Assembly: GCF_000328705.1 (NCBI RefSeq) | Contig: NC_019673.1 | Span: 8,195,501-8,259,500 of the forward strand | DNA length: 64,000 nucleotides | Source: Saccharothrix espanaensis DSM 44229 | GTDB lineage: Bacteria > Actinomycetota > Actinomycetes > Mycobacteriales > Pseudonocardiaceae | Direction of reading: 5' to 3' | Notes under the pieces: generated by a model | Seen by the model: only the letters and a program-made list of their open reading frames with translations | Told to the model about the DNA's origin: nothing | Database searches by the model: none | Shown: in pieces, positions 48,598-53,937 of the stretch | Layout: every line of letters starts with the position of its first letter | Numbering within the stretch: position 1 is the stretch's first letter | Translations under genes and position numbers: made by a program

Positions 48598-48779
48598 GGA
48601 TCGACTCTGCCGGCCGCGGCACGATCGTCGGTGCCGGATCCGCGCGATGACACCGTTCGGCCGCGCGCGACTCACCCTGCCGGCCGAACCCGCGCGGACG
48701 TGACAAATGTCCTGCCGGCGAATGGGCGTTCCGCCCGGTGGGTACGGCAGGTGGACGTGTCTACGAAGAGGAGGGGTCT

Positions 48780-49913
48780 GTGCTCGTCGCTGTGCTCACG
48801 TTCGCCGGGTCGGTGCTGGTCGCGTTGGTGGCCGTGGCGCTCGTGCACCGGGTGGTGCGGCGGATCGGTCGCCGGTCCGCCCTGTTCGCCGGGCTGGCCC
48901 GGCACGCGCACAAACCCGCCCTGCTGGTGGCCGTGCTGGTGGCGGTGCAGTTCTCGCTCGGGGTCGTGGCGCGCGGCGAGTGGCGGCCGGCGGTGGTGCA
49001 CGGCGTCGGGATAGCGCTCATCCTGGCCGGCGCGTGGCTGCTCGGGGCGCTGCTGGTGGTCGCCGAGGACGCCACGCTGGCGCGGATCCGGGTCGACGTC
49101 TCCGACAACCGGCACGCGCGGCGGGTGCACACCCAGATCACGTTGGTGCGGCGGGTCACCGTCGTGGTGGTCGGGTTGCTGGCCGCCTCGGCGGTGCTCA
49201 TGACGTTCCCGGCGGCGCGGGCGGCCGGCACGAGCTTGCTGGCGTCGGCCGGTGTGATCGGTGCCATCGCGGCGCTGGCGGCGCAGTCGTTGCTGGGCAA
49301 CGTGTTCGCCGGGGTGCAGATCGCGTTCTCCGACGCGTTGCGGCTCGACGACGTCGTGGTGGTCGAGGAGCAGTGGGGGCGGGTCGAGGACATCACGCTG
49401 ACCTACGTCGTGGTGCACCTGTGGGACGACCGGCGGCTGATCCTGCCCACCGCGTACTTCCTCAAGACCCCGTTCGAGAACTGGACGCGGACCCAGTCGG
49501 CGCTGCTCGGGACGGTGGAGCTGGACGTCGACTGGAACGTGCCGGTGGAGGACCTGCGGCAGGAGCTGCGGCACGCGGTGGAGACCGTGGACCTGTGGGA
49601 CGGCCGGGTGTGCGTGGTCCAGGTGACCGGCGCGGTCGGCTCGTTCGTGCGGGTCCGCGCGCTGGTCAGCGCCACCGACGCGGGCCGGCTGTGGGACCTG
49701 CGGTGCGTCGTGCGGGAGCACCTGGTGGCGTGGCTGCGGACCCGTCACCCGGAGGCGCTGCCGCAGGTGCGGGTCCGCGACCTGCCGCCGCAGCGGGCCA
49801 CCCGGGACAGCCCGGCGTCCGGGTCGGACAACCGGGTGTTCGGCGAGAGCGCCGACGGCGAGGAGCGGGTGCACGCGTTCAGCGGTCCGGAGGCAACCAA
49901 CCGGGGCAGTTGA
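48780..49913 (+). CDS. Small-conductance mechanosensitive channel (MscS family)
   Basis: A 377-aa membrane channel that opens under membrane tension to release osmolytes. Helices cover about 1-25, 45-65, 80-102 and 130-160. The pore-lining helix TM3 is ASAGVIGAIAALAAQSLLGN, followed by the beta domain RLDDVVVVEEQWGRVEDITLTYVVV and the conserved LPTAYFLKTPFENWTR. The start GTG has a GAGGAGGGG ribosome site. The C-terminal 45 residues are a charged tail. A lipoprotein gene follows 37 bp later in the same direction. Confidence 0.93.
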   Translation: MLVAVLTFAGSVLVALVAVALVHRVVRRIGRRSALFAGLARHAHKPALLVAVLVAVQFSLGVVARGEWRPAVVHGVGIALILAGAWLLGALLVVAEDATLARIRVDVSDNRHARRVHTQITLVRRVTVVVVGLLAASAVLMTFPAARAAGTSLLASAGVIGAIAALAAQSLLGNVFAGVQIAFSDALRLDDVVVVEEQWGRVEDITLTYVVVHLWDDRRLILPTAYFLKTPFENWTRTQSALLGTVELDVDWNVPVEDLRQELRHAVETVDLWDGRVCVVQVTGAVGSFVRVRALVSATDAGRLWDLRCVVREHLVAWLRTRHPEALPQVRVRDLPPQRATRDSPASGSDNRVFGESADGEERVHAFSGPEATNRGS

Positions 49914-49950: not shown

Positions 49951-50412
49951 ATGAAGCGACCAGTGCTGGGTCTGCTGTGCTTGCTGGTCGCCGGCTGCGC
50001 GTCGCCGGTCATCGACCACGGTCCGGCCTCGACACCCCCGTCGTCGACACCACCGTCCTCGACCGCCACCGCGACGGCCTCGACCAGTACCGCGACCCCG
50101 ACCACCCCGCCGCCGCCCACGGAGGTGCCAGTGCCCGCCAAACTGAGCCCGCACGGCAAGGACGTGCTGGCCAAGGCCCAGCGCGACGGCGTGACGAACG
50201 TGGTCCTGGTGATCTCCACGGAAGCCGGCGCGACCGAACGGACAGCCACCACCCTGCGCGAACTGGGCGCGACCGTCGAGGCGACGGACACGTCGATCGG
50301 CTACCTCCGGGTATCGGTGCCGGTGGGCGACGTGGGCCGGGTGACCGCAGTGGAGAGCGTGCGACAGGTCGACGTGGACGAACCCATCAGCCGCCCGGAC
50401 CCGACGCCTTGA
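49951..50412 (+). CDS. Lipoprotein consisting of a free-standing subtilase propeptide (I9-like) domain
   Basis: A 153-aa exported lipoprotein. The signal peptide ends in LLVAGC (Cys16 lipidated), followed by a Ser/Thr/Pro linker (about 20-62) and an 80-residue domain. That domain aligns without gaps to the propeptide of the subtilase encoded at 50692-53937 (31 of 81 identical by my hand count), sharing LAKA, GYLRVSVP-like and VDVDE-like stretches. Propeptides fold and inhibit subtilases, so this may be a membrane-tethered inhibitor or folding helper. It follows MscS by 37 bp and converges with the protease gene. Confidence 0.75.
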   Translation: MKRPVLGLLCLLVAGCASPVIDHGPASTPPSSTPPSSTATATASTSTATPTTPPPPTEVPVPAKLSPHGKDVLAKAQRDGVTNVVLVISTEAGATERTATTLRELGATVEATDTSIGYLRVSVPVGDVGRVTAVESVRQVDVDEPISRPDPTP

Positions 50413-50641
50413 CGATGGCGCGCACCGGCGTGGCGCGCGCTCGCCGCCTGCGAGGTGTCGGTCCAGCCTGGCCGTGACGTCGTCGGTCGGGACGTGCCGG
50501 CAGCCCGAAGCCCAGGCCCGGCACCGGACCGATCCGCAGCGTGTCGGGGCGGGGATCGCCCCCCGGACGGCGTGCCGCAGATCGCGGTAGCTCGCCCGGC
50601 ACGCACGGTCGGATGAGGCCGCTCGCCCGTTCGACATGCAG

Positions 50642-50675
50642 CAGGGCCACCCCCGGCGAACCGGGGGTGGCCCTG
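50642..50675. terminator. Perfect 15-bp terminator hairpin
   Basis: cagggccacccccgg (50642-50656) and ccgggggtggccctg (50661-50675) pair perfectly around a CGAA tetraloop. It lies 17 bp after the subtilase stop on the minus strand and 230 bp after the lipoprotein, so it mainly ends the protease mRNA. The rest of the 279-bp gap has no gene I can support. Confidence 0.88.
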
Positions 50676-50691
50676 TGTTCGATCAGGGTGA

Positions 50692-53600
50692 TCAGACCAC
50701 GTTCTGGACGATCACCGCGCTGCGCCCGACCACAGCGCCCTCACCGGTCTGCACGGTGAGTTCGCCGCGCAGGACGCGGCCGGAGCCGGCCTGGCCGGTG
50801 GCGGTCACGACGCCCGGGACGGTCCACGTGGCGCCGGCCGTGCGGTCGGCGTTGGTGTCGGTCACGGTCACGGTGCCGAGACCGGCCACCGCGTACACGT
50901 CGATGTAGTCGTACTCCGTCGTGCCGGACGGCACGGCGTAGCCGTCGACCTGGATGCGCCAGGCACCCGCGGCCGGGTTGTTCACCGTGAACGACTCCTC
51001 GGAGTCACCGTCGGCCGTCTGCCCGAACAGCACGCACGTGCCCGTGGTGCAGTTGTAGACGAACAGGTCGAGGTCGGCCGAGATGTCGCTCGGCCGGCCG
51101 ATGGTCGCCCGCAGCGAGGTGGAGCCCGCCGGGACGGTCACGTCGTAGAGCTGCGAGACGCCCTCGGCGATGGCGGGACGGCCGATCTTGGCGCTGGACA
51201 GCTCGCCGCCGACGAGCCGGCCGTTGAACGCCGCGAGGGTGTTCTTCACCGTGTAGCTGCGCTCGATGCCGACGCCCGCGGTGGCCGACGCGATGGTGTC
51301 GGGGTCGGGGCTGACCGACGTGCCGAGCACCGACGCCGTCACGGTGTAGGGGGCGTTGTCCGCGTCCGAGGTGCGACGCGCCTCGACCACGATCTCCCAC
51401 ACGCCCGGGATCGGGTTGGCGACCGTGCGGCTGGTGGGCGTGCCACCGGCGCAGCCCGCGCCCGCGTCCGGGTTGTAGCAGTTGGTCGTGGTGGTGGTGT
51501 CCGCCGGCACGCCGTACGGGTCGTAGCGCAGGAACCGGACCTGGCCCTTGCCCGCCTCGGTGCCGCCGCCCGCCAGGTCGACCTTCAGCGCGCTGGTGCC
51601 GACCGGCACCTTCACGAAGAAGCTCTGCGACTGGTTGCGCGCGATGGTGCCCGTCTTGGTCACCGCGAACTTCTTGGCCTCGACGAACTCGTCACCGGCG
51701 AAGACCGTGTTCAGGGTGAACACGTCGATGCCGCGGGTGTTCGGGTTGTCCAGCTTCAGCACGGCCGAGTGCGCGCCCGCCTTGGTGGGCTTGACCTTGA
51801 CGTCGAACTTGACCGGCGTGTTCAGCGGCAGGCTGACCAGGGACTTGGACGAGAACGTCCCGTCGTTGCCCTGCCAGTTGACCAGGAACTGCTGGTTGCG
51901 GTTCGGGCCCGTGGTGCGGGTCAGGGTGTACGTGCGCACGTACTCCTTGCCGATGGTCACGCCCTCGCGGTCGTGGATGCCCACGCCGGTGTTGGGGGTC
52001 GGCAGCAGGGCCGACAGCGCCGTGTTGACGGTGACCGAGGTGGTGACGTTCTGCACGTTCGGGTGGGCGTTGAGCTGCTGCCACGAGCGCTGCACGTCGA
52101 ACAGGCCGGCACCCTGCTCGTAGGCCTTGAGCGAGGAGACCCACTTGGCGCCGGAGTGGATGGCGTTGCGCAGCTCCAGCACGGTCGGGCGCTCGCCGTT
52201 GTGCTCGGCCTTGAACGCGCTGACGAGCAGCGCCGCGGCACCGGTCGCCTGCGGGGAGGCCATCGACGTGCCGTTGAACATGGCGTAGCCGGGCGGCAGG
52301 TCGTAGGTGCCGGCCACCGGGCCGGGCACCTGCCACTGCGGCACGGTCGAGATCGCCGAGCCGGGCGCGACGATGTTCGGCTTGAAGCCGCCATCCTCAC
52401 GCGGGCCGCGCGACGAGAAGCCGTGCAGGTTCTCCTTCTGCGCGGTGACCGAGCCGTAGTTGGACAGCCAGGTGTCCCTGGTGATGTACGAGCCGACGCT
52501 GATCGCGTCCGTCGTCACCGAGGGGTCGCCGACGGTGTTCGCGCCCGCGCCGCTGTTGCCCGCCGAGATGAAGATCTGCATGTTGTACTCGGCGATGGTG
52601 CGGTTGTAGAGCTCCGACCGCGCGTTGTTGCCGTCGTTGAGGGCCGGCAGGCCGCCGATCGAGATGTTGACGACGTCCGCGCCGTTGCGCGCGGCGTAGA
52701 GCACGCCGTCGATCAGGCCGGAGGAGGTGCACGACGGGGTCGACAGGCAGACCTTGACCGCCATCAGCTTCGCGCCGGGGGCCGCGCCGGTGGCCTTGCC
52801 GCCGAACAGCTTGTTGGCGGCGGTGATGCCGGCGACGTGCGTGCCGTGCGCGGCGGCCGAGATGCCGATGTTGACGTACGCCTGGCCGGCGTTGTCGTAG
52901 ATCGAGCGGTCGGTCTGCACCACGAACGCCACGGTGTCCAGCACCGGGGTGCCGGGGTTGTCCGCGCCGAAGTGGCCGACGTCCTTCTTGACCTTGTAGT
53001 CGATCATGGCGCGCTCGTCGGTGAAGTCGCCGTCACCGTCGACGTCCACCCGGACTTCCTTGGTGGTGATGTCCTGCAGCACGCCGAACGCGTCCACGCG
53101 GTCGCCGTCGCGGTTGATGTCGCCGCCGGTCTCGCTGGCCGCCAGGCCCAGGTCGCCCGCGGTCTCGCGGAACAGGCCGAAGCTGAACGGGCCGCCGGTC
53201 GCCGGGGCCTTGTAGGCCACGCCGCCGTTGCTGAACGGGCCGTTGTAGCGGCCGCCGACCTGCACCCACGTGCCGTCGCCGGAGTTGGTGGCGTTGGCGT
53301 TGTACCAGTCGACGATCTTGCGCTCACCGGTGGACGTGGTGGCCAGCGCCGGGTGGTCCAGGTCGATGCCGCTGTCCAGGATGGCGATCGTGGTGCCGCG
53401 GCCGTCCCAGTTGCGGTGCTCGTCGGTGAACTGCGCCGCCTTGGTGTCCTGGATCGGCATGTACGGGTTCTTCTTGGGCGTCTTCGGGCCCGGCGCGGTC
53501 TGCGGCAGCGGCGTGGTCGCGCCGTCCGGGCGCGGGTTGTCCAGCGCCACCAGGCCGTCGACGTCGATCGCGTTCACCGAGGCCAGCTTGGCGGCCTTCT

Positions 53601-53937
53601 CGGCGTTGCCGCGCGGCACGGAGACCTTGAGGTACTCGACGTCCCGCTCGGTCGACTCGACGACGCCGCCGAGGGCCTTGAGGTCGTTCGCCGCGGAGTC
53701 CAGCTTGCCCGGTTCGGCGGCGACCAGCAGCGTGACGTTGTCCTGGCCGGCCTTCTCGGCCTTGGCCAGCTGGTCGCGGTCCTGCTTGTCCAGGCCCTTG
53801 TCGGTGGAGGTGGGGGCGTTCGGCGCTTCCTGCGCGACGGCCGGAGCGGCGGCGAAGCCGAACCCAGTCGTGCCCAGTACGGCGGCCAGCAGGGCCGCAC
53901 TGGTGCGGTGTCTCCACCGGCTTCCTGAGTTGATCAC
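50692..53937 (-). CDS. Large secreted S8 subtilisin-like serine peptidase
   Basis: A 1081-aa exported protease. The signal peptide (1-35) ends near AAAPAVAQ. The I9-like propeptide follows (about 45-130). The catalytic triad is visible as Asp in IAILDSGIDLDHPAL, His in AHGTHVAGI and Ser in MFNGTSMASPQATGAA. A long insertion with Asp-rich, possibly calcium-binding loops (RDGDRVDAFG, DVDGDGDFTDE) separates Asp and His. The C-terminal 450 residues are beta-sandwich and PPC-like domains (AWRIQVDGYAVPSGTTEYDYIDVY). GTG 53937 gives the signal peptide. A homologue of its propeptide is encoded as a separate lipoprotein nearby. Confidence 0.95.
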   Translation of the reverse strand: MINSGSRWRHRTSAALLAAVLGTTGFGFAAAPAVAQEAPNAPTSTDKGLDKQDRDQLAKAEKAGQDNVTLLVAAEPGKLDSAANDLKALGGVVESTERDVEYLKVSVPRGNAEKAAKLASVNAIDVDGLVALDNPRPDGATTPLPQTAPGPKTPKKNPYMPIQDTKAAQFTDEHRNWDGRGTTIAILDSGIDLDHPALATTSTGERKIVDWYNANATNSGDGTWVQVGGRYNGPFSNGGVAYKAPATGGPFSFGLFRETAGDLGLAASETGGDINRDGDRVDAFGVLQDITTKEVRVDVDGDGDFTDERAMIDYKVKKDVGHFGADNPGTPVLDTVAFVVQTDRSIYDNAGQAYVNIGISAAAHGTHVAGITAANKLFGGKATGAAPGAKLMAVKVCLSTPSCTSSGLIDGVLYAARNGADVVNISIGGLPALNDGNNARSELYNRTIAEYNMQIFISAGNSGAGANTVGDPSVTTDAISVGSYITRDTWLSNYGSVTAQKENLHGFSSRGPREDGGFKPNIVAPGSAISTVPQWQVPGPVAGTYDLPPGYAMFNGTSMASPQATGAAALLVSAFKAEHNGERPTVLELRNAIHSGAKWVSSLKAYEQGAGLFDVQRSWQQLNAHPNVQNVTTSVTVNTALSALLPTPNTGVGIHDREGVTIGKEYVRTYTLTRTTGPNRNQQFLVNWQGNDGTFSSKSLVSLPLNTPVKFDVKVKPTKAGAHSAVLKLDNPNTRGIDVFTLNTVFAGDEFVEAKKFAVTKTGTIARNQSQSFFVKVPVGTSALKVDLAGGGTEAGKGQVRFLRYDPYGVPADTTTTTNCYNPDAGAGCAGGTPTSRTVANPIPGVWEIVVEARRTSDADNAPYTVTASVLGTSVSPDPDTIASATAGVGIERSYTVKNTLAAFNGRLVGGELSSAKIGRPAIAEGVSQLYDVTVPAGSTSLRATIGRPSDISADLDLFVYNCTTGTCVLFGQTADGDSEESFTVNNPAAGAWRIQVDGYAVPSGTTEYDYIDVYAVAGLGTVTVTDTNADRTAGATWTVPGVVTATGQAGSGRVLRGELTVQTGEGAVVGRSAVIVQNVV

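What the first reader, a model, noticed from the sequence alone, without database searches (positions are those of the whole stretch)
49951..53937. Stand-alone subtilase propeptide made as a lipoprotein beside its homologous protease
The C-terminal 80 residues of the lipoprotein at 49951 align gap-free with the I9-like propeptide of the S8 protease at 50692-53937 (31 of 81 identical by hand). The lipoprotein has no protease domain. Propeptides are known to fold and inhibit subtilases, so a membrane-tethered trans-acting inhibitor or chaperone at the exit face of the membrane is a plausible new protease-control pair. The two genes are convergent, so they could be expressed at different times; the lipoprotein follows MscS.
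Basis: partly seen in the sequence, partly recalled or inferred. Interest (0 to 1): 0.75.

Follow-up and report, generated by a model that had tools for sequence, protein, structure and literature searches.

The report
Membrane-tethered stand-alone subtilase propeptide
A soil actinobacterium makes a separate, membrane-anchored copy of the "safety catch" of a secreted protein-cutting enzyme, from a gene beside the enzyme's own gene, and relatives keep the two genes together, so it probably holds that one enzyme in check at the cell surface.

Summary
Observation confirmed. The 153-aa lipoprotein at 49951-50412 (+) ends in a 92-residue domain aligning without gaps to the propeptide of the convergent S8 protease at 50692-53937 (-): 31 of 81 and 33 of 92 identical, E 3.8e-14 genome-wide. 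AlphaFold gives a subtilase-propeptide fold. The stand-alone occurs in 25 of 25 sampled genomes of the genus (Saccharothrix) and in 23 of 189 other sampled genomes of the family. In 47 of these 48 it lies next to such a protease; in the 48th both genes are at contig ends. A lipobox pattern is present in 45 of 47, the acidic pair equated with helix-capping residues in 44 and the Pro-x-Pro tail in 46. dN/dS is 0.14-0.60 in 19 chosen pairs. None was recognised outside the family, within the limits. Most likely it is a dedicated membrane-tethered inhibitor of the neighbouring protease; binding and inhibition are untested. Stand-alone propeptide inhibitors named in the papers I saw are eukaryotic, so this is a new variant of a known kind.

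The parts
49951..50412 (+). stand-alone propeptide lipoprotein, 153 aa
   Evidence: orthologues
49951..49998 (+). lipoprotein signal peptide with lipobox V-A-G-C16
   Evidence: sequence; permissive lipobox pattern in 45 of 47 orthologues; no signal-peptide predictor was available
49999..50133 (+). S/T/P-rich linker of 45 residues; in the 45 orthologues with a lipobox its length is 1 to 54, median 27
50134..50409 (+). [quoted passage not shown]
50371..50379 (+). D141-V-D143, acidic pair equated with the helix-capping acids of known propeptides
   Evidence: both acidic in 44 of 47 stand-alones; role taken from PMC6993865 passages, register inferred
50380..50409 (+). C-terminal tail EPISRPDPTP; its Pro-x-Pro end parallels NPRP of the protease propeptide
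50692..53937 (-). secreted S8 protease, 1081 aa
   Evidence: secretion inferred from the N-terminal sequence
53527..53802 (-). the protease's own propeptide, residues 46-137, homologous to the stand-alone domain
52147..53403 (-). S8 catalytic domain, residues 179-597, with D, H, N and S motifs present
50941..51156 (-). PPC domain, residues 928-999
50642..50675 (.). 15-bp perfect hairpin between the convergent genes; possible shared terminator (no T-run)
   Evidence: -39.7 kcal/mol for 61 nt, z -5.8; not listed by the terminator scan
48738..49913 (+). mechanosensitive-channel gene 37 bp upstream; clade-specific neighbour, probably not part of the pair

Best explanation
The lipoprotein is a dedicated, membrane-tethered inhibitor of the neighbouring secreted S8 protease. 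Shown by computation: it has the propeptide fold; of the genome's S8 proteases examined, its clear homology is to this one's propeptide; it carries a lipobox, lacks a catalytic domain, is under purifying selection, and keeps its place beside the protease. Inferred: after export it is lipidated at Cys16 and displays the domain on a flexible linker outside the membrane. There it docks on the mature protease where the protease's own, already removed propeptide used to sit: the D-x-D pair caps surface helices, an aliphatic residue at D+3 fills S4, and the Pro-rich tail lies in or across the active-site cleft. Protease near the cell that made it is thereby blocked or held at the surface, while protease that diffuses away, or whose tethered inhibitor is lost, is active. 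The protease's own propeptide remains the folding chaperone.
For: Homology. Fold: the six leading Foldseek/PDB matches are subtilase pro-forms or prodomain chains (3afg E 1.5e-3, probability 1.00, TM 0.65 on the query; 4i0w; 4jp8; 2z58_B; 8c4z), and free propeptide chains such as 1spb_P follow; the call does not show which residues of the long chains align, and no match reached E 1e-3. Helices and strands of the lipoprotein model match those of the protease's own propeptide at an offset of 9, within one residue (not independent, since alignment A3 held both kinds). Linkage: 47 of 48 stand-alone genomes have it next to the protease, gap 0-2677 bp; the 48th is at contig ends. In 200 family genomes: both 34, stand-alone only 0, protease only 47, neither 119 (counted by me; 3 genomes with weak matches only are in 'neither'; Fisher 2.6e-16, not corrected for kinship). 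Linkage survives rearrangement: 43 convergent, 3 tandem lipoprotein-first, 1 tandem protease-first. Lipobox 45 of 47. dN/dS 0.14-0.60 in 19 of 19 chosen pairs (pairs share sequences). Acidic pair 44 of 47, aliphatic D+3 46 of 47, Pro-x-Pro 46 of 47. Proteases with a related propeptide but no lipoprotein are common (47 genomes; others), so the lipoprotein is not needed by that class in general. Catalytic motifs intact in 66 of 66 fetched proteases. Precedent: SUB1-ProM, a stand-alone propeptide-like protein encoded beside subtilase genes, is a potent selective inhibitor (PMC6993865, passages).
Against: No binding or inhibition data, and no complex model: the protease model failed. Two of 47 stand-alones (L093, L094) lack a signal peptide and lipobox and have lost both acids of the capping pair; a third (L095) has lost the first. 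The tail position that would be P1 is variable in the stand-alones (R, I, D, P, G, A, K and others) but Asp or Glu in 62 of 66 propeptides, so it is not a simple product mimic. Covariation is inconclusive: within Saccharothrix the partial correlation of lipoprotein with parts of the protease (0.26-0.36) is not clearly larger than with MscS (0.34). Support for a single origin is weak.
Confidence: 0.6

Rival explanations
1. Trans-acting folding chaperone: the lipoprotein sits at the exit side of the membrane and helps the large protease fold as it leaves Sec, in the manner of membrane-bound lipase foldases (recalled, not looked up), adding to its own propeptide.
For: Lipobox and inferred membrane placement; propeptides are known chaperones as well as inhibitors (PMC10580911, passages); strict linkage to the protease.
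Against: All 66 fetched proteases keep a propeptide of their own, better conserved than the lipoprotein, and many related proteases exist without any recognised lipoprotein (47 family genomes; others).
Confidence: 0.17
2. Surface anchor or receptor: the lipoprotein uses the propeptide fold mainly to hold the protease on the cell surface without blocking it.
For: The tail is not a clean product mimic: the inferred P1 is variable and four residues extend beyond it. Linkage would fit this equally well.
Against: The acidic pair and Pro-x-Pro tail are conserved as in the propeptides, and stand-alone proteins of this fold described in the papers I saw passages of are inhibitors.
Confidence: 0.12
3. 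It regulates something else, for example the MscS-type channel upstream or a different protease.
For: In 24 of 25 Saccharothrix loci the channel gene is 37-122 bp upstream on the same strand. Two other S8 loci match the propeptide model weakly (E 4e-5, 8e-5).
Against: The channel gene is within 122 bp in 28 of 47 loci, whereas the protease is adjacent in 47 of 47 fetched loci. Of 30 S8 loci examined, none but the neighbour matches the stand-alone model better than E 0.019.
Confidence: 0.07
4. Relic or passenger: a duplicated N-terminal gene fragment without present function.
For: The domain evolves faster than the protease's propeptide (mean distance 0.83 against 0.29 in 30 genomes), and two members lack a signal peptide.
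Against: dN/dS below 1 in 19 of 19 chosen pairs, presence in 25 of 25 genomes of the genus, conserved lipobox, and one side of the tree rather than repeated fresh copies (support only 64/93).
Confidence: 0.04

Closest known systems
Plasmodium SUB1-ProM (PMC6993865, passages seen)
   Same: Stand-alone subtilase propeptide-like protein with a signal peptide, encoded next to subtilase genes in a conserved syntenic locus; conserved acidic capping residues and C-terminal tail; potent selective inhibitor of SUB1.
   Different: Eukaryotic; no predicted transmembrane domain or GPI anchor according to the paper; tail one residue shorter than that of the SUB1 propeptide, whereas here the tail extends four residues past the inferred P1.
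MEROPS I9 stand-alone inhibitors: Pleurotus peptidase A inhibitor 1, yeast peptidase B inhibitor, Arabidopsis SPI-1; also Toxoplasma TgMIC5 (as listed in PMC6993865)
   Same: Small independent gene products that mimic the propeptide fold and act on subtilases.
   Different: Eukaryotic; the first three are described there as lacking significant sequence similarity, whereas this one is clearly homologous to its neighbour's propeptide. That they are not lipoproteins is recalled.
Propeptides of Tk-SP (3afg), Tk-subtilisin and subtilisin BPN' (1spb)
   Same: Similar predicted fold.
   Different: Made as the N-terminal part of the enzyme and cut off, not by a separate gene.
Streptomyces subtilisin inhibitor, SSI (recalled, not tested)
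   Same: Secreted actinobacterial protein inhibitor of subtilisins.
   Different: Recalled as an unrelated fold and family.

Membership tests
Stand-alone subtilase-propeptide inhibitors (MEROPS I9 type) | Separate gene product without a protease domain | tested here: met
   153 aa, no Pfam protease domain
[quoted passage not shown]
   AlphaFold pLDDT 81.9, pTM 0.67; leading PDB matches are subtilase pro-forms and propeptides, none at E 1e-3 or better
Stand-alone subtilase-propeptide inhibitors (MEROPS I9 type) | Acidic residues that cap catalytic-domain helices | tested here: inconclusive
   An acidic pair (D141/D143 in the window) is kept in 44 of 47, but its role is equated with E209/D211 of PfSUB1 by motif only, without a complex
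Stand-alone subtilase-propeptide inhibitors (MEROPS I9 type) | C-terminal tail in the non-prime side of the active site | tested here: inconclusive
   Aliphatic D+3 (inferred P4) in 46 of 47, but the inferred P1 varies and the chain runs at least 4 residues further
Stand-alone subtilase-propeptide inhibitors (MEROPS I9 type) | Inhibits a subtilase | not testable with these tools
   needs purified proteins
Pfam Inhibitor_I9 (PF05922) | Sequence profile match | tested here: not met
   No match in P0001 or P0002 nor in the list for the 26 members of A1, E up to 1. There DUF4265 is the most frequent weak match (10 of 26, best E 0.0019); the only propeptide family is Fervidolysin_NPro-like PF22148 (4 of 26, best E 0.023)
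Bacterial lipoproteins | N-terminal signal peptide ending in a lipobox Cys | tested here: met
   VAGC16; permissive lipobox pattern in 45 of 47, with start codons chosen by script to fit it; lipidation itself not testable

The most novel reading that the evidence does not exclude
A bacterial surface-safety device: a lipid-anchored, non-cleavable propeptide mimic that catches the mature secreted protease at the membrane. Its tail runs across the scissile position (aliphatic P4, variable P1, Pro at P2' and P4') and so would not be turned over like the natural propeptide. The cell is protected and keeps a surface store of inactive protease that is released when the lipoprotein is shed or degraded.
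Probability: 0.25. Interest if true: 0.78.

Novelty: new variant of a known kind. Interest (0 to 1): 0.6.

Why it matters
This genome has 37 S8-domain matches. How such bacteria protect their own surface and control each enzyme once its propeptide is gone is, to my knowledge, poorly understood. A one-enzyme, membrane-tethered propeptide would be a simple genetic solution, and the pair is small enough to test directly. It would also be, as far as the eight searches of the held library show, a first bacterial counterpart of the eukaryotic stand-alone propeptide inhibitors, and a natural, possibly selective inhibitor scaffold.

Tried and rejected
AlphaFold of the protease N-terminal 600 residues: low confidence (pLDDT 41), probably because only 14 close rows were supplied; only its propeptide was modelled well.

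PDB search with profile A1 gave mostly ankyrin/DARPin and other chance matches; Tk-subtilisin propeptides appear only at E 0.11 or worse, so this is not used as evidence. PDB search with the protease propeptide alone found one irrelevant match.

Covariation (mirror-tree) test: suggestive over 30 genomes (partial correlation lipoprotein-catalytic domain given MscS 0.53), not specific within the 24 Saccharothrix used. Treated as inconclusive.

Stand-alones outside the family: 397 genomes of the order (some of them of the family) and 396 of the phylum were searched with A1. Strong hits outside the family lie in frames of 660 aa or more, not each checked for an S8 domain, with one exception: a 275-aa frame in G288 (L162) that looks like a partial propeptide fragment and was not counted. 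Only 10 first-look candidates were scored per genome in those two calls, so divergent copies could be missed. Weak hits (E about 1e-5 to 1e-3) in other frames were dropped; many cover mainly the signal or linker region. One short-frame Pfam-I9 match (182 aa, G244, L164) among 61 order genomes lies at the start of a subtilase whose frame is broken, not in a stand-alone.

Profile scoring (47 of 47 and 66 of 66 assigned to the right model) is circular, since the models were built from those sequences.

The cut-out patterns partly fix some of the conservation. The propeptide pattern demanded D at D-2, D/E/H at D0, a residue of V/I/L/A/E/M at D+3 and P at D+8 (no protease failed it). The stand-alone pattern demanded a P-x-P/S end. 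In one search one of the 19 propeptide comparisons (L074-L077) pairs paralogues and is meaningless; the stand-alone values are not affected.

My first extraction scripts used wrong catalytic-Ser patterns (lost one locus, misassigned all) and were replaced; one search missed most proteases and was redone. In some searches start codons were chosen to favour a lipobox.

Literature: eight searches listed no bacterial stand-alone propeptide lipoprotein; the family-name term matched nothing, so it adds little. The library is open-licence PMC only, so this is weak evidence of novelty.
Full report
What is there. The lipoprotein gene runs from 49951 to 50412 (+) and the S8 protease gene from 53937 back to 50692 (-); they face each other with 279 bp between them. 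A strong 15-bp hairpin lies between them at 50642-50675; it has no T-run and the terminator scan does not list it. The lipoprotein has a signal peptide ending in VAGC, a linker of 45 residues rich in Ser, Thr and Pro, and a 92-residue C-terminal domain. The protease has a signal-like N-terminus, a propeptide, an S8 catalytic domain and a PPC domain.

The similarity is real. In the 9.36 Mb genome the lipoprotein finds only itself and this propeptide (E 3.8e-14, 150 of 244 candidates scored). The genome has 37 S8-domain matches. I held DNA with 1.5 kb flanks for 30 of them: with the stand-alone model only this protease matches (E 4e-22, next 0.019); with the propeptide model it scores 5e-41 and two others 4e-5 and 8e-5. 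The genome's 17 Pfam-I9 domains all lie in frames of at least 399 residues, so none of those is a second stand-alone.

The family. Searching 25 genomes of the genus gave the stand-alone and the protease in 25 of 25. Contig lengths shared identify the genus as Saccharothrix and another lineage (g8) as Lentzea. In 200 family genomes (11 of the genus, 189 others), 34 have both, 0 the stand-alone only, 47 the protease only and 119 neither; I made this count by hand, putting three genomes with weak matches only in 'neither' and counting as protease one genome (G176) whose frame is only 484 aa. Altogether 48 genomes have the stand-alone (25 of the genus and 23 others). Forty-seven loci were read: 43 pairs are convergent, 3 are tandem with the lipoprotein first and 1 is tandem with the protease first; the gap is 0 to 2677 bp. 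In the 48th (G198) the two genes sit at the ends of two contigs. Five loci of one genus (g17) have two tandem proteases. Thirteen protease-only loci were checked within the fetched stretches for a missed stand-alone and none was found. Outside the family, 397 order genomes (some of them of the family) and 396 phylum genomes gave no recognised stand-alone, with the limits stated in Tried and rejected.

It is a maintained gene. A lipobox pattern is present in 45 of 47. dN/dS of the domain is below 1 in 19 of 19 chosen pairs, 0.14 to 0.60. In a tree of 113 domains all 47 stand-alones lie on one side of a branch and all 66 propeptides on the other. Its support is only 64 (bootstrap) and 93 (SH-aLRT), with several long branches, so one origin is the simplest reading and not a proof. 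The stand-alone evolves faster than the propeptide (mean distance 0.83 against 0.29 in 30 genomes).

Fold. AlphaFold of residues 54-153 gives pLDDT 81.9 and pTM 0.67. The leading Foldseek matches in the PDB are ProN-Tk-SP, the CspB entry 4i0w, pro-forms and propeptides of Tk-subtilisin and ProteinT protease; rank 7 is an unrelated chaperone, NapD. The best E-value is 1.5e-3, so none passes 1e-3, and the call does not show which residues of the long chains align. The protease model failed overall (pLDDT 41), but its propeptide is well modelled and its elements match those of the lipoprotein at an offset of 9, within one residue. This last agreement is not independent, because A3 held both kinds of sequence. 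Pfam does not recognise either as Inhibitor_I9.

Docking residues. In PfSUB1 the propeptide acids E209 and D211 cap catalytic-domain helices, V214 is P4 and D217 is the last residue, taken as P1 (PMC6993865, passages). Equating that motif with D141-x-D143 is my inference. On that register both acids are kept in 44 of 47 stand-alones and in 66 of 66 propeptides; D+3 (P4) is aliphatic in 46 of 47 and 66 of 66; Pro-x-Pro at D+8 and D+10 is kept in 46 of 47 and 62 of 66. Part of this is fixed by the patterns used to cut out the domains: for propeptides D at D-2, D/E/H at D0, the residue class at D+3 and P at D+8; for stand-alones the P-x-P/S end. No protease failed its pattern. D+6 (P1) is Asp or Glu in 62 of 66 propeptides but variable in the stand-alones. 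Forty-one of the 47 stand-alones end exactly at x-Pro-x-Pro; five have about nine more residues and one ends in GPPS.

How it most likely works. The protease's own propeptide folds it and is then lost. The lipoprotein, anchored outside the membrane, would bind mature protease at the vacated site and block it near the cell that made it. I prefer inhibitor to chaperone because every fetched protease keeps its own, better conserved propeptide, and because the same protease class lives without a recognised lipoprotein in many genomes. The step from conserved docking residues to inhibition is inference, supported by precedent only.

Against it. There is no binding evidence. Two members (L093, L094) lack signal peptide and lipobox and have lost both acids of the pair; L095 has lost the first. 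Covariation with the protease is not clearly stronger than with the channel gene within the genus. The MscS-type channel gene is a close upstream neighbour in 28 of 47 loci, so a link with osmotic response in Saccharothrix is possible, but it is not part of the constant pair.

Compared with what is known. Stand-alone propeptide inhibitors are known in fungi, plants and apicomplexans (listed in PMC6993865). SUB1-ProM is the closest in genetic layout. Eight literature searches listed no bacterial lipoprotein of this kind. I saw passages of PMC6993865 and PMC10580911, and of all other papers only the search listings. It plausibly works like an I9 stand-alone inhibitor. By fold it belongs with them; by Pfam profile it does not, and inhibition is untested.

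Noticed in passing
window genome G000: 37 S8-domain matches in one 9.36 Mb genome, several in clusters (for example around 2.640-2.646 Mb and 1.932-1.936 Mb).
   Followed up: partly
L093:6242-6499 (-) and L094:6480-6752 (-): In genus g21 the stand-alone domain has no lipobox, no signal peptide was seen in the three forward frames of the 400 bases upstream, and both acids of the capping pair are gone; it may be cytoplasmic or decaying.
   Followed up: partly
L074, L075, L077, L078, L080: In genus g17 two tandem proteases with different propeptides lie beside one lipoprotein, whose C-terminus carries about nine extra residues after DPTP.
   Followed up: no
L095:6582-6911 (+): A same-strand arrangement with the stand-alone 84 bp downstream of the protease frame; its tail (GGPPS) and first capping acid have diverged.
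   Followed up: no
window 48738-49913 (+): The MscS-type channel gene 37 bp upstream may be co-transcribed with the lipoprotein; this layout (gap 37-122 bp) holds in 24 of 25 Saccharothrix loci.
   Followed up: partly
L164:3040-5539 (+): A subtilase whose frame is broken after the propeptide, in another family of the order; it looks like a stand-alone I9 in a profile search but is not.
   Followed up: yes
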